From Candidatus Gastranaerophilales bacterium (GTDB lineage: Bacteria > Cyanobacteriota > Vampirovibrionia > Gastranaerophilales > Gastranaerophilaceae), in the NCBI GenBank assembly GCA_944324835.1, contig CALUXV010000012.1, positions 1 through 39,775 of the forward strand: 39,775 nt of DNA, read 5' to 3'. The notes beneath the pieces were generated by a model. It was given only the letters and a program-made list of their open reading frames with translations. It ran no database searches and was not told the origin of the DNA. Below are positions 15,404 to 36,328 of the stretch, one piece after another (the stretch's first letter is position 1; each line of letters starts with the position of its first letter). A program made the position numbers and the translations under genes.

Positions 15404-17995
15404 TTATATGCTGAAACGGAATCCCATCTGGAGCGCAATACCCTGCCTGCCTCCGTTTCTAATCATTGCTTCTAAAAATCCGGTTAGTCTGTCTCCCCAG
15501 CGTTTTTGTATTCCGACACCGTATTGAACAAAAGGTTTAACCGATAAGTCCGGCAAAAAGACATCATCCGCCTGAAATCTTGCCTGGTCAATAATATTCC
15601 ACACCATAGAAACTGCTATATACGGCTGCCAGAAATTCTTAAAATTCCCGATAAGTTTCAACTGCGGCTCTATATGAATTGCATGTAACGGTTCAGTATT
15701 AATACCGACATTTGAGGCTGTATGATAGTTGAATGTGTTTACAAAAGAATAAGACATCAAAAGACTCGGTTGAATAATAAGTTTTTTATTCGGAATCGTA
15801 AAATTGTATCCTGTTTTTTCTGCAACACCTGCCAACAGCATTCCAAATTCATCCCGTCCAAAATTACTTGATGCTTCACCCACATTTGCTCCAACACTAG
15901 CCGTCCAGGCAGAAAAGAATTTGCCTTTATAAAATACAGTGTCTGCACCTATCAGCCCGCCGTTATTATAAATTCCGATTCCGTCATACGCTTGATGCGA
16001 ACCGTTATAAGATGCGTATCCGCCATAAATATTGTACCAGCCGTTTTTTAACTCTCTTAATGAACTTTCACCGCCAAATATGCTGCCGTAACTGACATTT
16101 GAAACTTTAGGCCCGTTTTTTAAAGGTACGGATTCAAATATTGAATACGGCTTAAACCATATTCCGCTTCGTTGTTCCGGCATGATGAGAGGGGATAAAG
16201 AAACAAGGTTATTTGAACTTGCACATCTGTTTTTTAATTCAAATGCAATTTTTTCATCAGGCGGCATAATCATAACCATATCAAGGTTTGAAAAAATATT
16301 TTTATGGGTGTCCAACAAGGTTAAATATCCGCCCAATTGTGCTGCAACTTCACCTGAAAGTATTGACGGATTAAACCCGCCTCTTGTAAAATCAAAATCA
16401 CCATCTCCGGAATCATAACTTACACGGTAATTGTAAATAGGTGTTTGAAGTGTTGTCGGATTGTATTGAACATAATCTTTTAAAACCGTATCCGCAAAAG
16501 GAATTGATATATTTGGAGCTTTTGGAACTCCTTCAATTGCAAGGTTCGGGACAAACAGGTTTCCGCCTGAATACGATGATGCTGAAATTGTATCCATTGT
16601 ATTCGTATTCAGAGTTACGTCAGGATAAATATTTGCAGTTCCTGATACGTTCAGGTTCCCGAAGTTTATATTATCAATTACGCCGTTTTGTGTATTAAAA
16701 TTTACTCCGTTAGAAAAAGATGTGTTTTGAGCGTTGAAGTATGTTGTATCAGCCAGAAGATTAACCGTTCCGCCTTCAAAATTAAAATTTCCGGTATAGT
16801 TATTGTTTATACCGCCAAGATTCAGTATCCCCGAATCTTTTTTTGTTATTGTGCCAAGTCCGCTTATGCCGCTTAGAATACTTGTTGTACCGCCGGAATT
16901 AAATTCAATCTCTGCATTTTGTGCATTATAGATATCGTTTTTTTCTCCGGATTTATCAAAATTGTTTTGGAATGTGGAATTATCAATGTAGAGTTTGCCG
17001 CCGTTATATATTCCGCCGCCTTCTCCGATTTGGACATTGCCTGAAACACGATTATTTTCTATTGTTGAATTACTTATTGTTGTAACACCGTCAATATTGT
17101 TGTAGATAGCTCCTCCATTGGCATAAAAATCGGAATCTGCCGTGTTATTTGAGATTGTAGTATTATTTATGTTTAGAGCTGCATTGTTAAATATTGCACC
17201 GCCAAATGCATAGGAATAATCATCACCTCGTACGCTGCTATTATTTATGGACGAGTTATCAATATTCATATTTCCGATATTATAAATAGTACCGCCATAA
17301 ATAAATGAACCGTCTTCTCCTTGTGCGTAGTTATTGTTAAACAGAGTATTTTTTATTTCTATATTCCCGCTGTTATAAATAGCTCCGCCATAAGGAATTG
17401 CAGAACCTGACGAATAATTATTATCAAATACGGAATTATTAATTGTCATTGTGGCAGTGTTACTCTGGTATCCGTTTGCCAATGCTCCGCCGTAAGAAGA
17501 TGCCCCGTTAGTGTGGTTGCCGCTGAATAGGGTTGAATCAATATTTACTTCGCCGTCATTAAGGTTATATATTGCACCTGCAACGCCAAAATTAAGCCCT
17601 GCCGAATCTACAAAATTATCTATAAATGCGGAATTTGAAACATTTAATTCGCCTGCGTTATTGAAGATTGCTCCTGCAAAACTTGAAGCACTGTACCTTT
17701 GCCCCCTGCAATTCAACATACTAATTGTATTGAACTGGGTATCTTGATTAAAAATAAAACCGCTGAACGAATTTCTGCCGTTTATTGAATAATTATTTCC
17801 TTCAAATGTCAAATCTAAATTCATAAAACTGTTATTAATTGACTCATCGGAGGTCAAATTATTTCTAATATTTAAAATATCGCCGCTTGAAGGATTTGAG
17901 TTTATTAATTCATCAAAACTATATATCTGTATATCATCCGCCCAAACAGGTGCAGTTAATAATGCAGCAATTAATATTATTTTCTTAAATAGCAT
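15404..17995 (-). CDS. Pmp-type autotransporter adhesin
   Basis: An 863-residue type V secreted protein. A signal peptide begins MLFKKIILIAALLTAPVWA and is probably cut before DDIQ. The passenger (about 60-390) holds eight imperfect repeats of the form GGAIYN-x-NI-N-TxFxNN, as in chlamydial polymorphic outer membrane proteins, expected to form a beta-helix. A linker (about 400-600) leads to a C-terminal beta-barrel of about 270 residues from SGIWFKPYSIFESV to the final GFRFSI, with alternating strands such as GWYNIYGGYASYNGSH; the chain ends in Ile rather than the usual Phe. It likely displays or releases an adhesive surface domain. I chose ATG 17995 because it starts the signal peptide; a TTG 78 bases upstream is open but less likely. 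No Shine-Dalgarno site is seen, but TATTAT/TATAAT boxes lie 3-6 bases before the ATG. Confidence 0.88.
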   Translation of the reverse strand: MLFKKIILIAALLTAPVWADDIQIYSFDELINSNPSSGDILNIRNNLTSDESINNSFMNLDLTFEGNNYSINGRNSFSGFIFNQDTQFNTISMLNCRGQRYSASSFAGAIFNNAGELNVSNSAFIDNFVDSAGLNFGVAGAIYNLNDGEVNIDSTLFSGNHTNGASSYGGALANGYQSNTATMTINNSVFDNNYSSGSAIPYGGAIYNSGNIEIKNTLFNNNYAQGEDGSFIYGGTIYNIGNMNIDNSSINNSSVRGDDYSYAFGGAIFNNAALNINNTTISNNTADSDFYANGGAIYNNIDGVTTISNSTIENNRVSGNVQIGEGGGIYNGGKLYIDNSTFQNNFDKSGEKNDIYNAQNAEIEFNSGGTTSILSGISGLGTITKKDSGILNLGGINNNYTGNFNFEGGTVNLLADTTYFNAQNTSFSNGVNFNTQNGVIDNINFGNLNVSGTANIYPDVTLNTNTMDTISASSYSGGNLFVPNLAIEGVPKAPNISIPFADTVLKDYVQYNPTTLQTPIYNYRVSYDSGDGDFDFTRGGFNPSILSGEVAAQLGGYLTLLDTHKNIFSNLDMVMIMPPDEKIAFELKNRCASSNNLVSLSPLIMPEQRSGIWFKPYSIFESVPLKNGPKVSNVSYGSIFGGESSLRELKNGWYNIYGGYASYNGSHQAYDGIGIYNNGGLIGADTVFYKGKFFSAWTASVGANVGEASSNFGRDEFGMLLAGVAEKTGYNFTIPNKKLIIQPSLLMSYSFVNTFNYHTASNVGINTEPLHAIHIEPQLKLIGNFKNFWQPYIAVSMVWNIIDQARFQADDVFLPDLSVKPFVQYGVGIQKRWGDRLTGFLEAMIRNGGRQGIALQMGFRFSI

Positions 17996-18118
17996 AAGAT
18001 TATAATATGAATTTAATCCGCAGAATCTATTAACTAACCGGGTAACATTATATTCCCCATATAATCTATTCAATAAAAAAAATAATTATTTAATACTCTA
18101 TATAAAAGGAGAGATAAC

Positions 18119-27956: not shown

Positions 27957-29708
27957 TTATTCATTCATTACCCGTTTAGATATCTCAAAAACCGGTAAAT
28001 CGTTGCCGTCTTTTATATCTTTAGGGCTTGGATTTTTTACCCACAAGTCAATTGAGTCTTCGTTTATATACTGTTTTGAATTCTCTGCAATTATATATTT
28101 TACAACATCTTTAGGTTTATCTTTATACCCTTCAATACCTGCGAAATCAAGAACTTTCATAAAATTATTCTTCATTACATAAAAAGCGTTTTCGACTCCG
28201 CCGGTTTTGCTTGTAATTCTTGTCTCAGCAGGGTTTTGAGAATAGCCGGAGTTATTTTTTAAATCAATTTTTTCATCAATTAAATCTCCGTCAATTAATT
28301 TATTAACATTTCGTTCTCCGATTTCGTCTTTTATTTTATTTAACCCTTCTTTAGTAATTTTATATCCCGTAAAATAATTATCTACATTCACTGATTCAAG
28401 TCTGTATGATGTTCTAAAATTAACATCTGCATTGCATCCTTGATGGTCAAGGCGCATATCAAGGTTTGGCGGAACAACTCCATTCTGGAATAAAAGTACA
28501 TCTCTGATTGTTAAAGGTTTTGATTTATCTTTACGTTTTTCACTCAAGTAGTATAAATCGTATTTCAAAACATCAACAGTACCTTTTACATCTGCAAAGG
28601 CATCATGTGCATCGTCCAGATTCTTACAGAACAAGAATTTATACTGTTCCGAGAGTTTTTTCCTTGCACCCAAATACGGATGAATTCTCTGCTGTAATAT
28701 AAATGGATCGATAACTTTATAAGAACGTTTTGGTTTTAATTGGTCATTTGAAAATTCATTATGTTCATTTATTGCATTATTCAACATTTTTATATCAAAT
28801 TTTGAATTGTATGCAACAATTATTCCGTTTTTCTTATTCAAATAATTGTTTACAAATGGTTTCAAAACTTCTTCCATAACCGGTGCATCTTTAACATCAT
28901 TATCATACAAACCGTGCACTGCTGATGCGCCTTCCGGAATATGTATCTTAGGATTGATTAACTGGCTGTAGCCTGTTTCTGGTAAAACTTTTCCGTTTTT
29001 AACCTGTATTGCACCAATCTGAATAATTTTGTCTAAAGGTTTTGTTGTATCATCAGTATTTGTACCTGTTGTTTCCGTATCAAATACAACGCAATCTATA
29101 CACAATTTGCCGTTCTCGTCAGTAATCGGAACATCAAGAGATTTGTGGCGTGACATATTCATTAATTCTTTCAGGTTTGTTGCAAAAGAAATATCATCGG
29201 TAGGTTTTTCATAAAGATTTTTGGCCGGCGGCTCTTTTACTTCTCTTGAATCAATCGAATGTGATGTCGCAAGCGGTTTCTTGACATTATATTTATTAAA
29301 CCTTTTAACCCAGGTTGTATCATTTGTTTCTGCAAGCGCATTTGCATGCTGGAATACATAAAACTCTGTTTCGGTAGCTGTTTTCCAATCCAAAGGTTCT
29401 TTAGAAAGGTTTTTCCAGCCTACTTTGTTAAAATCAACCCATATGCCGTCTTTTAAAAGCCCTTCTCCCTGATACTCTTTATCTGTAACTTTTTTTATAT
29501 AATTATCCTCAAACCATTGTCCTTTAAATGTTATATTTAGAGGCCTATATGGGTAAATAGAAATTGAGTTTAAGGCAATAGGTTTAGTCGTATTATGATG
29601 TGATGTACAATTGACGGCAGGGGAAACAGGATTGGATACATTTGTGGTTCCAGATTTGTAGTTAACAGGTGAATAATATGTTGAAATTATTTTTGATTGA
29701 ATATTCAT
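27957..29708 (-). CDS. DEDDh 3'-5' exonuclease-domain protein with leader and extra C-terminal domain
   Basis: A 583-residue protein. The exonuclease core (about residues 200-395) has all DnaQ motifs: VVFDTETTGTN (D210, E212), VHGLYDNDVKDAP, VAYNSKFDIKML (D305) and DDAHDAFADVKGT (H368, D373). DEDDh enzymes degrade single-stranded DNA or RNA from the 3' end. The first 200 residues are unlike DnaQ: a polar, proline-rich leader ending PLNITFKGQWFEDNY, and a region with KEPLDWKTATETEFYVF. Residues 400-583 form another unknown domain. There is no signal peptide. AGGAGG lies 6-7 bases before ATG 29708, 10 bases after the phospholipase D gene's stop, so both form one operon. Its substrate is not known. 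Confidence 0.85.
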   Translation of the reverse strand: MNIQSKIISTYYSPVNYKSGTTNVSNPVSPAVNCTSHHNTTKPIALNSISIYPYRPLNITFKGQWFEDNYIKKVTDKEYQGEGLLKDGIWVDFNKVGWKNLSKEPLDWKTATETEFYVFQHANALAETNDTTWVKRFNKYNVKKPLATSHSIDSREVKEPPAKNLYEKPTDDISFATNLKELMNMSRHKSLDVPITDENGKLCIDCVVFDTETTGTNTDDTTKPLDKIIQIGAIQVKNGKVLPETGYSQLINPKIHIPEGASAVHGLYDNDVKDAPVMEEVLKPFVNNYLNKKNGIIVAYNSKFDIKMLNNAINEHNEFSNDQLKPKRSYKVIDPFILQQRIHPYLGARKKLSEQYKFLFCKNLDDAHDAFADVKGTVDVLKYDLYYLSEKRKDKSKPLTIRDVLLFQNGVVPPNLDMRLDHQGCNADVNFRTSYRLESVNVDNYFTGYKITKEGLNKIKDEIGERNVNKLIDGDLIDEKIDLKNNSGYSQNPAETRITSKTGGVENAFYVMKNNFMKVLDFAGIEGYKDKPKDVVKYIIAENSKQYINEDSIDLWVKNPSPKDIKDGNDLPVFEISKRVMNE

Positions 29709-29718
29709 ACCTCACCTC

Positions 29719-31701
29719 CTAACCTACCAGGTCCAGTTTGCTGCCCGTATCAACGGCTGATTCTTGTGATTCGTAATAACGGTTTTTAATTTTTTCATAC
29801 TCGGATTCTGAGTGTTTCCAATCTCTCTCAAATTGCTGGTTAAAAACATTTGCAAGTATCGGTTTTTCAAATGCAATAGCGACTTCGTTGTTCCCGCGTT
29901 TATATTTTTCTTTTGCGTTGTTTCTATCAATCATGATTTTGTAGTAACCTTTGATTGTAGAAAGTGTAGGGCGTTCCTTTTCCGTAAAATGATATTCTTT
30001 CTTTTGAAGAGAAATTGTTGCTTCTCCGGTTTGGTTAATATCTTTTATTGCTTTTTTGAGTTTTGCACGTCTGACATATAATTCTTTGTAATCTAGTTTT
30101 TTACGGTTAACAGGCGGAAGTCCTACTTCTTTTTCAAAAGGTTCGACAGTTTTTAAGTATTCTCTTATTTCTTCATTAATTTTATCCGTATAAAGTTCAT
30201 AGTCTTCTCTTTCGCCTTTTTTGAGGTTTTGGTTCAACCCCATTGCAGACCAGTTTGTAGAACCTATCATAACCTCTCTGTCATCAAATACTGCCCATTT
30301 TGAGTGAAGTCTTTGATTGATTCTCTCATCGGTTTTGTATTCTCTAATATTGACTCCGTTTTCAACGAGTTCCTGATATGCGGTATTACAATACGGGAAT
30401 TCACGTATAATCGACGGATCAACAATTATTTTGGCATCCAGTTCTCCGTTTTGGGTTCTCTGTATAATATTTTGAATGATTTCTTTGTCAGATATAACAA
30501 ATAATTCCGCCCTGAGTTTTTTTGCTGTTTTGACTTTGTTCAAAAGATAATCTCTGGTGCTTTCTTCTCCTTCTTCTCCGACATAAGCAAGTTCTCTAGG
30601 TTTTGTAGCCAGAATTTTTATTGCCGGATTTTCTACAGGGTTGCGTTTTATTATATCAAGTTTACTCAAATCGTTTTCATCATACCGTTTTTTATCAATA
30701 TCATTGTCATAAAGAACACCAACTGTATTCATATAATCAATATTTTCTTGTTTAATCTCCTTATTAAGCCCTTTGTACAGTTCTTGTTCATCTTCTGATA
30801 GCGGTCCTGCTACCATTTTGGTTCGTCCGAGTCTTTGCCAGGAGAATTTCCAGTCTTTATTAAAAATATCTTCCAGAATATTATCAACTTCGGAATTTTT
30901 CTTGTCAGGCAGCGTTTCAAGAGCAATACAGGCATCATGGTTTGCATTTGAGTGATTGCCCCAGTTCATACCGCCAATAATAAGTTTTTTGCCATCTACT
31001 GCAACCAGTTTGACGTGCTGCAATGCAGCTCCGCCTTGTGCTGCTCTCGGATACGGAACAACGTCAATATCATTTTCTTTCAGATACTTAATCATATCCA
31101 TGTTGTTATAATGTCTGTCACGTTCATTGTTTCCGTTTATATACCATTTGTGAGCATCAAGAATAATCTGTACTTTAAGATTAGGATTCTCTTTTTTCTT
31201 GTTTATAATTATCGGCAGTAAACTTACGTGCTGGTCGTATCCTCCGACAACCTCTGAACCGTTAGCTGGCCATTTATGACCATCTATTTTTGGATTTTGA
31301 AACTCGAACATTTCAATCTGAATAGAATCTTTCGCACTCTTTACAAATTCAACGGTTTTATCAAAAATTTGTTCTCCGTCAATAAGTGTTGTTGCTCTTG
31401 TATTTCCGACTATAGCAGACTTACTTGGAACCGGCGGAACCTGCGGGATATATGAGAGAGATTTAATTTTCTGCATCAAATATTCTGTTCTGGAGATTCC
31501 CATTTTGTTTGCATCCATCGCAATTTTATTTGCGACAAAAAAAGACACATCGTCTAATGCTACTGGATGGTCTTTTTTAGGGGTTCTAACTATTGGTTTT
31601 GGAATTCGATTTTGATAACTATCGTTCTTCTTTTCGCTCCCGAAAGTTATACTTTTGGGAATGCTATATGTAATAGGAACAATAGCCAAGTTTGTTTTCA
31701 T
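29719..31701 (-). CDS. Phospholipase D superfamily protein with two HKD motifs
   Basis: A 660-residue protein. Both catalytic half-sites are intact: HVKLVAVDGKKLIIGGMNW at about 229-247, with H-x-K-x4-D and GGxN, and HSKWAVFDDREVMIGSTNW at about 466-484. Such two-motif proteins act as phospholipases, cardiolipin synthases or nucleases; a soluble chain without membrane helices fits a secreted or cytosolic PLD or nuclease better than cardiolipin synthase. The N-terminus reads MKTNLAIVPITYSIPKSITFG, a leader similar in style to that of the exonuclease encoded after it. A lysine-rich helical C-terminal region (about 500-650) follows the second motif. ATG 31701 is preferred over the GTG six bases upstream. 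A TTGTCA-17-TATAAT promoter lies about 35 bases upstream. Confidence 0.85.
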   Translation of the reverse strand: MKTNLAIVPITYSIPKSITFGSEKKNDSYQNRIPKPIVRTPKKDHPVALDDVSFFVANKIAMDANKMGISRTEYLMQKIKSLSYIPQVPPVPSKSAIVGNTRATTLIDGEQIFDKTVEFVKSAKDSIQIEMFEFQNPKIDGHKWPANGSEVVGGYDQHVSLLPIIINKKKENPNLKVQIILDAHKWYINGNNERDRHYNNMDMIKYLKENDIDVVPYPRAAQGGAALQHVKLVAVDGKKLIIGGMNWGNHSNANHDACIALETLPDKKNSEVDNILEDIFNKDWKFSWQRLGRTKMVAGPLSEDEQELYKGLNKEIKQENIDYMNTVGVLYDNDIDKKRYDENDLSKLDIIKRNPVENPAIKILATKPRELAYVGEEGEESTRDYLLNKVKTAKKLRAELFVISDKEIIQNIIQRTQNGELDAKIIVDPSIIREFPYCNTAYQELVENGVNIREYKTDERINQRLHSKWAVFDDREVMIGSTNWSAMGLNQNLKKGEREDYELYTDKINEEIREYLKTVEPFEKEVGLPPVNRKKLDYKELYVRRAKLKKAIKDINQTGEATISLQKKEYHFTEKERPTLSTIKGYYKIMIDRNNAKEKYKRGNNEVAIAFEKPILANVFNQQFERDWKHSESEYEKIKNRYYESQESAVDTGSKLDLVG

Positions 31702-31733
31702 ACACACAAATATCCAACTCTCGTAACACCCAC

Positions 31734-31762
31734 ATTATAATTTGTGTTTTTATATCTGACAA
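31734..31762 (-). promoter_or_regulatory. Promoter of the PLD-exonuclease operon
   Basis: On the minus strand TTGTCA (31757-31762) and TATAAT (31734-31739) are separated by exactly 17 bases, 5/6 and 6/6 to consensus. AACAC/GTGTT inverted repeats flank the -10. The predicted mRNA leader is about 26 bases. Confidence 0.75.
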
Positions 31763-31834
31763 GCCTAATATAAAGTTTATTTAAGAAACATTACGAGTTT
31801 GATACAAAAAGGATGAACTATTTTTTAAAGGTGT

Positions 31835-31840
31835 TATAAC
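31835..31840 (+). promoter_or_regulatory. -10 box of the dGTPase-like gene
   Basis: TATAAC lies 6 bases before ATG 31847, with no obvious -35. It predicts a leaderless transcript. An AAAGG site 13 bases upstream of the ATG is the competing explanation. Confidence 0.35.
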
Positions 31841-31846
31841 TAAATT

Positions 31847-33094
31847 ATGCGTGTATTGTGTGGTGTGACTTCTTATTCATTTAAATCAAATCATTCAAAG
31901 TTCCAAAATGAAGCAATGAATGAAAATAATCCCAGATGGGAAAATGCAACTAAGCGTGAATCTCCGCTTGAGACAAAAACTTTTGATTTGAGAACACCGT
32001 TTGAGCGGGATAAAAACAGGATAATGTATTCCGAAGGATACGACCGTTTGAGATATAAAACGCAGGTATTTTTTAATCCGCAAAACGATATGGTATCCAC
32101 CAGAAGTACCCATGTCGCATTGGTTTCTGATATTGCCAGAAGTATTTCCAAACATCTCGGTTTAAATGAGGATTTGGCAGAAGCAATTGCTCAAGGTCAT
32201 GATATCGGCCATACTCCATTTGGCCACGACGGAGAAAAAGTTCTGGATTCAATTTCTCGTTCAAAAGATTTGCCAAAATTCTGGCATGAGAAAAACAGTC
32301 TGAGAATGGTTGATGATATTCTACTCCTTGAAAACAGCAAAGGAAAATTAAAGAATTTGGATTTGACTTATGCTGTCAGAGATGGAATTATCAATCATTG
32401 CGGAGAAGTTAACCAGAATTTTGTAATGCCGAGAGAGGAATTTATTGATTTAAAAGCAATACAACATCCTGCACAGGTTGAACCTTACACATGGGAAGGG
32501 GTTGTTGTAAAAATATCAGATAAAATTGCATATTTAGGAAGAGATATAGAAGATGCAAAAAAGCTGGGTATATTAAAAGGCAAGCAACTAAAGGAATTAA
32601 ATAAAATGATGTCGAAACATCTTGGGATACCCAATCTGGAAGCAAATAACACAAATATTGTAAATCTTTTTATACACGATATTGTTCAAAACTCTTCACC
32701 TGACAAAGGAATCGGTTTTTCTGAATCTGTAGCGCATTTAATGGATGATATTAAAGAATTTAATTACAAAAATATTTATCTGAAGCCGGAAGTTAAAAAG
32801 ATTAATTCAAAAAACGTTGATGAAATTATCAAACCTGTTTTTGATTATTATGAGAGTAATTATGATGAGAGAGCTTTGGTTAAAAATACCAGAAAAAATC
32901 CAATACTTACAACCTTCAAAAACTGGGCGCTTAAATATACGAATACGCCTGAAAGACCCAAGAATTGTGATAATAAGATATTATATCATCTTAAAAATCC
33001 TAAAGAGTACAATCAGGCGATAGTTGATTTTATATCCGGAATGACCGATAAATATATTCTTCGTGTTTTCAAATTTATTAAAAAAGCTAAATAG
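31847..33094 (+). CDS. dGTPase-like HD-domain triphosphohydrolase
   Basis: A 415-residue HD-superfamily protein that resembles deoxyguanosinetriphosphate triphosphohydrolase. TFDLRTPFERDKNRIMYSEGYDRLRYKTQVF is the family N-terminal block; STHVALVSDIARSI and AIAQGHDIGHTPFGHDGE give the metal-binding His and the HD pair, and DKIAYLGRDIEDA supplies the last Asp. The enzymes split dNTPs into nucleoside and triphosphate, which can starve DNA replication of phage. The first 30 residues (MRVLCGVTSYSFKSNHSKF) are absent from ordinary dGTPases and resemble the other leaders in the window. The start is placed at ATG 31847. It is divergent from the PLD-exonuclease operon and convergent, with a 1-base gap, with a secreted peptidase-like gene. 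Confidence 0.85.
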   Translation: MRVLCGVTSYSFKSNHSKFQNEAMNENNPRWENATKRESPLETKTFDLRTPFERDKNRIMYSEGYDRLRYKTQVFFNPQNDMVSTRSTHVALVSDIARSISKHLGLNEDLAEAIAQGHDIGHTPFGHDGEKVLDSISRSKDLPKFWHEKNSLRMVDDILLLENSKGKLKNLDLTYAVRDGIINHCGEVNQNFVMPREEFIDLKAIQHPAQVEPYTWEGVVVKISDKIAYLGRDIEDAKKLGILKGKQLKELNKMMSKHLGIPNLEANNTNIVNLFIHDIVQNSSPDKGIGFSESVAHLMDDIKEFNYKNIYLKPEVKKINSKNVDEIIKPVFDYYESNYDERALVKNTRKNPILTTFKNWALKYTNTPERPKNCDNKILYHLKNPKEYNQAIVDFISGMTDKYILRVFKFIKKAK

Positions 33095-34504: not shown

Positions 34505-35284
34505 TTAAAATACCGCACAAATACCTTCCATGAATTTTGGAATCAGAATATTTAAATACTCAACAATAGGACGTACAAACATTATTGATAACAATAATCC
34601 TAAATATATTTTAAGAGGAATTGATACCATAAATATATTCATCTGAGGCATAAGTTTTGAAGTAAAACCTAGAAGAACATCACTTATAAAGAGCACACCA
34701 AAAATTGGAAGAGCAATTTTTAATGAAATAACAAAAATCTGGCTAATTATAAATATTATCTGATGTACGACTTCCGGAGAGAATCCGAATCCATAGCCTA
34801 TAGGCATTACCTGAAAACTATTGTAAAATGCCGAAAAAAGTATATGGTGTGCATTTAAGGATATAAATACCATTGTCATCATCCAGGTATACATCTGTGT
34901 AATAACAGGAGAAGAGCCTCCGGACATCGGGTTTAATGCCATATCAGCAGATAATCCCATCTGTATAGAAAACATATTTGCGCCCAGTTCGATTGCAATA
35001 AATAAAACATTTGCACAATAACCTATTGCAAACCCTATTAAAAACTCTCGAAATAAAATAATTGTTAATTCCGGAACGGAGGTTGGCGCCATAAAACTTA
35101 TCTTTGATTGTATCAGTGGAAATATCAAAAAAGATATAACTGCACATAGCCATATTTTAACCTGCTGCGGGATTGGAAATGTAGAAAACAAAGGAGCAGA
35201 GGCAAACATACCGCTTAACCTTGTTACTATCGCCATAAAAAGAATTATATTTGCAGGAGAAAATATGTCGAACAAATCAATCAT
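34505..35284 (-). CDS. fliR: Flagellar biosynthesis protein FliR
   Basis: FliR is part of the inner-membrane FliPQR export gate that passes flagellar subunits into the growing axis. The 259 residues have the family features: LFMAIVTRLSGMFASAPLF, REFLIGFAIGYCANVLFIAIELGANMFSIQMGLS, and LPIFGVLFISDVLLGFTSKLMPQMNIFMVSIPLKI, with about six helices. Its ATG lies 3 bases after the fliQ stop. In many flagellated bacteria flhB follows fliR or is fused to it; here no flhB or flhA is seen after the 168-base gap. The start is the ATG at 35284; the operon is transcribed toward lower coordinates. Confidence 0.95.
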   Translation of the reverse strand: MIDLFDIFSPANIILFMAIVTRLSGMFASAPLFSTFPIPQQVKIWLCAVISFLIFPLIQSKISFMAPTSVPELTIILFREFLIGFAIGYCANVLFIAIELGANMFSIQMGLSADMALNPMSGGSSPVITQMYTWMMTMVFISLNAHHILFSAFYNSFQVMPIGYGFGFSPEVVHQIIFIISQIFVISLKIALPIFGVLFISDVLLGFTSKLMPQMNIFMVSIPLKIYLGLLLSIMFVRPIVEYLNILIPKFMEGICAVF

Positions 35285-35287
35285 GTA

Positions 35288-35560
35288 CTAACCGCCTATT
35301 AACCGTGGAATAGTATCCATAAACTCATTGAATGTACCGATAAATAAATTAAACATCCATGGAAGAAGTATAACTAATACAACTACGCTGCCGATAATTT
35401 TTGGTACAAATGTAAGAGTTGATTCTTGAATCTGCGTAACTGTTTGAAACACACTGACAATAAGACCTAAAACCATACCTGCAACAAGTATTGGAACCGA
35501 AACTTCTAATACCAGTACAAATGCTTTTTGAAGAAGTGTAATAATAATATCCTGATTCAT
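35288..35560 (-). CDS. fliQ: Flagellar biosynthesis protein FliQ
   Basis: A 90-residue two-helix inner-membrane protein, one of the stalk components of the FliP5Q4R1 export gate. The sequence shows KAFVLVLEVSVPILVAGMVLG, then ISVFQTVTQIQESTLTFVPK, the highly conserved FliQ loop, and VVLVILLPWMFNLFIGTF. The ATG is 6 bases after the fliP stop and the stop is 3 bases before the fliR ATG. Length of 90 residues is normal for FliQ. The type III secretion homolog SctS is the main alternative, but with flagellar-type FliP and FliR next to it FliQ is preferred. Confidence 0.95.
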   Translation of the reverse strand: MNQDIIITLLQKAFVLVLEVSVPILVAGMVLGLIVSVFQTVTQIQESTLTFVPKIIGSVVVLVILLPWMFNLFIGTFNEFMDTIPRLIGG

Positions 35561-35566
35561 AACTTA

Positions 35567-36328
35567 CTACCTCACAAAGCCTTCAACAAGTGATTTAACA
35601 ACTAAGTACCATCCGTCTACAAGTACAAACATTATCAGTTTAAATGGTAATGCAATCATTGTTGGCGGCAAAAACATCATCCCCATAGATACAAGTACTG
35701 ATGATACAACAATATCAATAATCAGGAACGGTAAAAAGATAACAAACCCGATTGTAAATGCAGTTTTGAGCTCACTTAATATGAATGCCGGTAAAAGACA
35801 ATAAGTCGGGACATCATCTTTATTTTTAGGTTTCTCAAGTTTACCCATCCGGACGAATAGTGCCAGTTCTTTTTCGTTAGTCTGCTTAAACATAAAGTCA
35901 CGAATAGGAACGATAGCTCTATCCAGTGCTGCCTGCTGTGTTATCTGGTTATGCATATATGGCTGCAATGCTTTATCATTAATCTGGTTTAAAGTAGGCG
36001 ACATGACAAAAAATGTAAGTATTAAGGCTAAACTTGTTATTACCTGATTAGGTGGCAAAGTATTTACGCCCAGTGCCTGACGGGTTAATGATAGAACTAT
36101 TACAATTCTTATAAATGATGTTGTCATTATAAATATACTTGGAGCCAAAGTTAAAATGGTTAACCATATAACAATTTGTACCCCGTTTGTAAAGTCTTGC
36201 GGGGTATTGGCGGGCTGCATTCCAATGTTAATATTAGGAAAAGATACCGGAGCCGCCATCGCAGGAACTGTACAAAAAATCGATATTAAAAAGCCTAACA
36301 ACACGTACTTAAGTGTTTTTCTATTCAT
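35567..36328 (-). CDS. fliP: Flagellar biosynthesis protein FliP
   Basis: FliP forms the ring of five subunits at the core of the flagellar export gate. The 253-residue protein begins with a signal-peptide-like segment, KTLKYVLLGFLISIFCTVPAMA, which is a flagellar FliP feature lacking in type III secretion homologs. Then LTLAPSIFIMTTSFIRIVIVLSLTRQALG and LPPNQVITSLALILTFFVMSPTLNQIN follow, and the cytosolic/periplasmic FRDFMF-like segment PIRDFMFKQTNEKELALF, closing with FLPFLIIDIVVSSVLVSMGMMFLPP. AGGGA precedes the ATG at 12 bases. It starts the fliPQR operon, with a TTGATT-17-TATTAT promoter upstream. The signal peptide supports flagella rather than an injectisome. Confidence 0.95.
   Translation of the reverse strand: MNRKTLKYVLLGFLISIFCTVPAMAAPVSFPNINIGMQPANTPQDFTNGVQIVIWLTILTLAPSIFIMTTSFIRIVIVLSLTRQALGVNTLPPNQVITSLALILTFFVMSPTLNQINDKALQPYMHNQITQQAALDRAIVPIRDFMFKQTNEKELALFVRMGKLEKPKNKDDVPTYCLLPAFILSELKTAFTIGFVIFLPFLIIDIVVSSVLVSMGMMFLPPTMIALPFKLIMFVLVDGWYLVVKSLVEGFVR

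What the first reader, a model, noticed from the sequence alone, without database searches (positions are those of the whole stretch)
27957..33094. Divergent locus of an exonuclease, a PLD protein and a dGTPase-like enzyme
Three enzymes that break nucleic acids, phosphodiesters or dNTPs are clustered: DEDDh exonuclease and two-HKD PLD in one operon with a near-consensus promoter, and a dGTPase-like HD protein reading the other way. dNTP hydrolases and PLD nucleases are both used in phage defence, so this could be a three-part defence unit; alternatively it could be a set of secreted effectors. The exonuclease and the PLD also carry large unrecognised domains (exonuclease 1-200 and 400-583; PLD about 500-650).
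Basis: partly seen in the sequence, partly recalled or inferred. Interest (0 to 1): 0.65.

Follow-up and report, generated by a model that had tools for sequence, protein, structure and literature searches.

The report
Tagged DNA- and nucleotide-destroying gene trio
Some gut relatives of cyanobacteria carry a conserved two- or three-gene cassette for enzymes that break down DNA and probably its building blocks, each starting with a protein tag that looks like an export signal, so the set may work outside the cell; this has not been tested experimentally.

Summary
The window (Candidatus Gastranaerophilales) encodes a DEDDh exonuclease (EXO), a two-HKD PLD enzyme and a dGTPase-like HD protein, all with intact catalytic residues.

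They form a real, accessory unit. PLD and EXO are adjacent on one strand in 30 of 30 loci. The dGTPase is beside them in 21. Flanking genes differ between genera, and related genomes lack the unit. Outside Gastranaerophilaceae the PLD-EXO pair recurs in other families of the class.

Known defence families do not fit: only generic PADLOC hits, housekeeping flanks, no phage or plasmid copies.

New finding: all three proteins begin with a variable, disordered, Ser/Pro/Asn/Thr-rich, Asp/Glu-poor leader ending in a short (S/T/P)F(K/G/A)(G/A/S) motif. Unlinked dGTPase paralogues start directly at the catalytic domain. The same leader type sits on many unrelated proteins. It resembles type III secretion signals. 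Cassette-bearing genomes are almost all flagellated, and nearly all family members keep a second flagellum-like export apparatus.

Best explanation (about 0.4): exported enzymes that destroy DNA and dNTPs outside the cell, sent through a flagellar or flagellum-derived type III apparatus. Export and enzyme activity are inferred. The main rival is intracellular anti-phage defence (0.25).

The parts
27957..29708 (-). EXO: DEDDh 3'-5' exonuclease-type protein, 583 aa, second gene of the PLD-EXO operon
   Evidence: RNase_T E 8.6e-19; DEDDh residues invariant in 13 relatives; Pol III epsilon/PolC exonuclease fold Z about 16
29526..29708 (-). EXO N-terminal leader, residues 1-61, disordered, running into the NITFKG motif
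   Evidence: pLDDT below 50 for 1-61; F61 invariant, rest unalignable; composition
28569..29090 (-). EXO DEDDh exonuclease domain, residues 207-380
29719..31707 (-). PLD: two-HKD phospholipase D-superfamily enzyme, 662 aa, first gene of the operon
   Evidence: both HKD motifs invariant in 15 relatives; closest folds vaccinia F13, PLD 7e0m, PLD3, PLD4
31567..31707 (-). PLD N-terminal leader, residues 1-47, disordered, containing SITFGS
   Evidence: pLDDT below 50; F22 at least 90% conserved
30955..31023 (-). PLD first HKD motif, residues 229-251
   Evidence: (PF00614)
30238..30312 (-). PLD second HKD motif, residues 466-490
29905..30201 (-). Helical insertion (residues ~503-601) inside the second HKD lobe; the lobe closes with residues ~605-632
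   Evidence: Secondary structure of the model; structural alignments span 98-635
31847..33094 (+). dGTPase-like HD-domain dNTP triphosphohydrolase, 415 aa, divergent from the operon
   Evidence: (TIGR01353 155.6 bits, cut-off 152.35)
31847..31888 (+). Short leader of the dGTPase-like protein (MRVLCGVTSYSFKS); much longer in other genera
   Evidence: absent from unlinked paralogues
31734..31762 (-). Promoter-like site TTGTCA-17-TATAAT for the PLD-EXO operon
   Evidence: 11/12 match, not above chance in number

Best explanation
The locus is a conserved accessory cassette: a PLD-EXO operon as core, with a dGTPase as frequent third member. It makes three enzymes that together would remove DNA and its precursors: a PLD3/4-like HKD phosphodiesterase, a 3'-5' DEDDh exonuclease and a dNTP triphosphohydrolase. 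Each carries an N-terminal leader that looks like a type III export signal. Most likely the three proteins are exported, through the flagellar apparatus or the related flagellum-like apparatus of these bacteria, and destroy DNA and dNTPs outside the producing cell (a neighbouring, prey or host cell, or the local medium). Shown by computation: the genes, catalytic residues, co-conservation, patchy distribution, and the leader with its composition. Inferred: enzyme activity, export, route and target.
For: Cohesion: PLD and EXO adjacent in 30/30 loci, dGTPase beside them in 21, in different flanking contexts. Pairwise distances agree (PLD-EXO r 0.97, PLD-DGT 0.84, EXO-DGT 0.90). Across 289 genomes of the class EXO occurs in 19, all among the 24 with PLD, and the pair is adjacent in five of six loci read outside the family. 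Leader: disordered in both models, unalignable except for F-x-(G/A/S), and retained in distant families (strict motif in 9 of 12 distant proteins against 8.5% background). The cassette dGTPases carry it while the unlinked paralogues examined start at the domain. Composition: Pro, Ser, Gln, Asn, Thr up; Asp, Glu, Gly down. EXO starts M-x-(I/V) in 27/28. Published type III signals are Ser-rich, poor in charge, with Ile favoured at position 3 (PMC2668754). The leader class is genome-wide: 33 of 643 protein families have the motif in residues 1-75, against 7 and 5 in the next two windows and a shuffled mean of 7.4, maximum 15. Apparatus: cassette genomes are flagellated (24/24 against 96/289 in the class; 15/17 in the family), and a second FliP-type export gate is present in nearly all 146 family genomes.
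Against: No secretion has been observed and no cognate chaperone found. Leader-bearing proteins also include an AAA ATPase, a CheR-type methyltransferase and an M16 peptidase, so the leader might be an intracellular localisation tag. Two cassette genomes (G003, G056) have no flagellin, and the leader also occurs in a genome without flagellin, so the flagellum proper cannot be the only route. The link to flagella may reflect lifestyle or shared ancestry, since genomes are not independent. dNTP hydrolases are classically cytosolic. In this genus the dGTPase leader is short. No phospholipase or nuclease preference of the PLD was tested.
Confidence: 0.4

Rival explanations
1. Intracellular anti-phage defence cassette: on infection the dGTPase lowers dNTPs while PLD and EXO degrade phage DNA.
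For: Accessory and patchy within genera; all three enzyme types are used in defence (dGTPase: PMC12265719; PLD-like DrmC, DEDDh); tight co-inheritance.
Against: No match to a known system; DrmC-I scores 32 bits against a cut-off of 133 and the antiphage dGTPase model 126 against 400; PADLOC's dGTPase model does not discriminate; flanks are housekeeping; no sensor or regulatory partner is conserved; absent from viral contigs and plasmids, with only a 27% clsA match in one phage; does not explain the shared leader.
Confidence: 0.25
2. Nutrient scavenging: exported or cell-surface enzymes digest environmental DNA to nucleosides for uptake.
For: PLD and DEDDh enzymes would turn DNA into nucleotides; gut habitat with abundant DNA; reduced biosynthesis reported for this lineage (PMC3787301).
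Against: A dNTP triphosphohydrolase has no substrate among DNA-digestion products; no transporter or nucleosidase is conserved beside the unit.
Confidence: 0.15
3. Intracellular DNA or nucleotide maintenance module with a lineage-specific N-terminal localisation tag.
For: The leader also occurs on ATPase and methyltransferase proteins; EXO core is Pol III epsilon-like.
Against: Absent from most relatives (about 17/146 have it), so not essential; housekeeping exonuclease and dGTPase paralogues exist in the same genome, and the dGTPase paralogues examined lack the leader.
Confidence: 0.15

Closest known systems
dGTP triphosphohydrolases (TIGR01353; defence dGTPases; Clover CloA)
   Same: HD catalytic residues, HD_assoc region, passes the TIGR01353 cut-off
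   Different: N-terminal leader, partner genes PLD and EXO, no CloB-type nucleotidyltransferase noted; far below the antiphage_dGTPase cut-off
PLD3/PLD4/vaccinia F13 branch of the PLD superfamily
   Same: Two HKD lobes; best structural matches F13 Z 28.9, 7e0m 28.6, PLD3 27.6, PLD4 27.2
   Different: About 15% identity, a helical insertion in the second lobe, bacterial leader; substrate unknown
DEDDh exonucleases: Pol III epsilon, PolC, TREX1
   Same: Complete DEDDh site and fold; epsilon and PolC Z about 16, TREX1 about 13.5
   Different: Additional regions 62-200 and ~410-583 of unknown fold, leader, operon with PLD
DISARM DrmC and NucT-type PLD nucleases
   Same: HKD signature
   Different: Scores far below cut-offs; no DISARM partners found among the flanking genes scanned
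Type III secreted effectors
   Same: Disordered, Ser-rich, Asp/Glu-poor N-terminus with Ile favoured at position 3
   Different: A recognisable FxG-type end motif, whereas no common motif is known for type III signals (PMC3617162); apparatus flagellum-like; secretion untested

Membership tests
dGTP triphosphohydrolase (TIGR01353) | Score above curated cut-off, HD residues intact | tested here: met
   155.6 bits against 152.35; H118, D119 and neighbouring residues invariant
Anti-phage dGTPase (NF041026) | Score above curated cut-off 400 | tested here: not met
   126.3 bits
PLD superfamily, two-HKD | Two HxKx4D motifs in a two-lobe fold | tested here: met
   Invariant in 15 relatives; fold Z 20-29
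PLD3/PLD4 5'-exonucleases | Fold plus 5'-exonuclease activity | tested here: inconclusive
   Fold among the closest, tied with other PLDs; activity not testable here
DISARM DrmC | Score above 133 and DISARM partner genes | tested here: not met
   32.1 bits; no DISARM proteins among 97 flanking ORFs scanned
DEDDh exonuclease | D-x-E, D, H-x4-D residues | tested here: met
   D210, E212, D305, H368, D373 invariant; RNase_T above cut-off
TREX1 | Closest relationship to TREX1 rather than to other DEDDh enzymes | tested here: inconclusive
   TREX1 Z about 13.5, below Pol III epsilon
Clover defence system | CloA dGTPase with a CloB nucleotidyltransferase | tested here: inconclusive
   No conserved further partner in 30 neighbourhoods; CloB not sought with a specific model
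Type III secretion substrate | N-terminal disordered, Ser-rich, low-charge signal | tested here: met
   features in PMC2668754
Type III secretion substrate | Secretion through the apparatus | not testable with these tools
   Needs an export assay
Toxin with immunity (contact-dependent or type VI style) | Conserved immunity gene next to the toxin | tested here: not met
   No further gene conserved across the 30 loci

The most novel reading that the evidence does not exclude
Vampirovibrionia-type bacteria use a shared N-terminal leader to send a large set of otherwise cytosolic-looking enzymes through a flagellar or flagellum-derived type III apparatus. This cassette would be one such export set: a bacterial functional counterpart of TREX1 (DEDDh), PLD3/4 (HKD) and SAMHD1 (HD dNTPase) that clears DNA and dNTPs in a target cell, possibly blunting DNA sensing in a eukaryotic host or poisoning prey.
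Probability: 0.15. Interest if true: 0.88.

Novelty: new variant of a known kind. Interest (0 to 1): 0.62.

Why it matters
No secretion route or effector set turned up in our searches for this common gut lineage of non-photosynthetic cyanobacterial relatives (no paper found joining Gastranaerophilales and type III secretion beyond incidental mentions). A leader that marks many proteins, and a flagellum-like export gate kept even where flagellin is missing, would turn 'partial flagellar genes left by genome reduction' into a working secretion system, and the leader would list its substrates. The cassette is a clean test case because three different enzymes share the tag.

Tried and rejected
Known defence systems: PADLOC on the three proteins and on 97 flanking ORFs gave only generic or scattered hits. 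Mobile-element origin: no relatives in viral contigs or plasmids and only a 27% clsA match in a Microcystis phage. Sequence search of the PLD profile against solved structures: nothing. Leader as wrong start codon: rejected, because the EXO start follows the PLD stop by 10 nt and the F-x-G end is conserved across families. Leader strictly tied to flagellin: rejected, since it occurs in genome G072, which lacks flagellin, and in cassettes of G003 and G056. Domains of most leader-bearing proteins: Pfam finds few. Ile/Val at position 3 across all leader families is only weakly enriched (p 0.048).

Full report
What is there. EXO (27957-29708, minus) has an RNase_T/DEDDh domain at residues 207-380. 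PLD (29719-31707, minus) has two HKD motifs. The third (31847-33094, plus) is an HD/HD_assoc protein that just passes the dGTP triphosphohydrolase cut-off. All catalytic residues are invariant in relatives. PLD and EXO form an operon with a 10-nt gap; a promoter-like site precedes it, though such sites are expected by chance in this AT-rich stretch. Close relatives found by sequence are named Candidatus Gastranaerophilales.

Is it a unit? Yes. Full-length PLD and EXO occur in about 17 of 146 genomes of the family and are absent from others in the same genera. In 30 loci from different genomes PLD is always followed by EXO on the same strand. The dGTPase is next to them in 21, usually divergent, but upstream or downstream on the same strand in two. 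Flanking genes are shared within the window's genus and mostly differ between genera. Distance matrices of the three proteins correlate at 0.84 to 0.97. In a tree the cassette dGTPases cluster away from unlinked paralogues, apart from two long-branched ones whose place is unsure. In a sample of 289 genomes of the class, PLD occurs in 24 and EXO in 19 of the same 24. Outside the family the pair is still adjacent in five of six loci read (L222-L226); the sixth, L227, has PLD alone.

What the extra regions are. The EXO model shows residues 1-61 disordered and a DnaQ/PolC-like core. The PLD model shows residues 1-47 disordered; matches to solved PLD structures span 98-635, best to vaccinia F13, a phospholipase D (7e0m), PLD3 and PLD4. 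So the 'unrecognised' C-terminal part is largely the second HKD lobe with a helical insertion. EXO 62-200 and about 410-583 remain unassigned.

The leader. Each protein starts with a variable stretch ending in (S/T/P/...)F(K/G/A/...)(G/A/S): NITFKG in EXO, SITFGS in PLD, YSFKS in the dGTPase. The stretch cannot be aligned between relatives but its end motif is conserved, also in distant families. The unlinked dGTPase paralogues examined begin at the catalytic domain. Leaders of EXO and long dGTPases are rich in Pro, Ser, Gln, Asn and Thr and poor in Asp, Glu and Gly, median length about 50. The motif is enriched at protein N-termini in these genomes: 33 of 643 families in residues 1-75, against 7 and 5 in the next windows and 7.4 (maximum 15 of 200 shuffles) expected. 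It is present in genomes with and without flagellin. Other bearers include an AAA ATPase, a CheR-type methyltransferase, an M16 peptidase and a PRTase-like protein; most have no Pfam domain.

A possible exporter. The features match published type III secretion signals: polar, Ser-rich, few charges, Ile favoured at position 3 (PMC2668754). They differ in having a visible end motif. The window holds flagellar FliP, FliQ and FliR. In addition nearly every genome of the family carries a second, shorter FliP (about 213-225 aa). In G000 it sits in a FliM/N-FliO-FliP-FliQ-FliR-like cluster, and another contig has a FlhA-FliH-FliG-FliF-FliE-like cluster (assignments beyond FliP, FlhA and FliF are by eye). 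Six of nine genomes tested lack flagellin but keep these genes. An earlier paper saw such partial sets as genome reduction (PMC3787301). Cassette presence goes with flagella: 24/24 PLD genomes have flagellin against 96/289 overall; genus-level p about 2e-5; 15/17 in the family. The tests ignore phylogeny, and FliP classes were assigned by score and size.

Interpretation. The most economical reading is an accessory set of enzymes that removes DNA and dNTPs, exported by a flagellar or flagellum-like route. The gene set, sites, linkage, distribution and leader are shown; activity, export, route and target are inferred. Intracellular phage defence is the leading rival, weakened by the lack of defence context and by the leader. 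Scavenging explains the nucleases but not the dNTPase. The resemblance to TREX1, PLD3/4 and SAMHD1 is one of enzyme types only.

Limits. Leader statistics rest on about 1.6 Mb plus flanks, ORFs are called from the first start codon, and predicted structures rest on shallow alignments (13-15 sequences).

Noticed in passing
G000:C30:13359-17374 (L176), G000:C3:9402-15390 (L072), G032:C1:113311-117277: A second flagellum-like export apparatus (short FliP, FliQ/FliR-like, FlhA, FliF-like genes) is present in nearly all 146 family genomes, including genomes without flagellin; possibly a non-flagellar type III system.
   Followed up: partly
Many ORFs, e.g. L154:6816-8381, L167:7848-10685, L138:2029-3141, L113:11782-14578, L162:11961-13238: Unrelated proteins share the N-terminal leader ending in (S/T/N/P)F(K/G/T/S)(G/A/S); a candidate list of co-targeted proteins.
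   Followed up: partly
window 34505-36328: Flagellar fliR, fliQ and fliP genes lie about 1.4 kb from the dGTPase gene; no conserved linkage with the cassette was seen in other genera.
   Followed up: partly
G072:C3:317649-318671, G000:C14:4528-5562 and equivalents: A third FHIPEP-family match of about 490-505 aa covering only the C-terminal half of the FlhA model occurs in most of the nine genomes tested.
   Followed up: no
G000:C1:131860-132273 and G000:C30:17783-18193: Flagellin_N matches lie in very long open frames (1346 and 994 aa), suggesting giant flagellin-like proteins.
   Followed up: no
window 15404-18073: 889-aa protein with repeated N/S/G-rich motifs and a C-terminal region that looks like an autotransporter beta-barrel, seen by eye.
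   Followed up: no
L227 compared with L224: In family f6 the PLD gene lies in both loci near SMC and M16 peptidase genes, but EXO is absent in L227, suggesting loss of EXO in genus g70.
   Followed up: no
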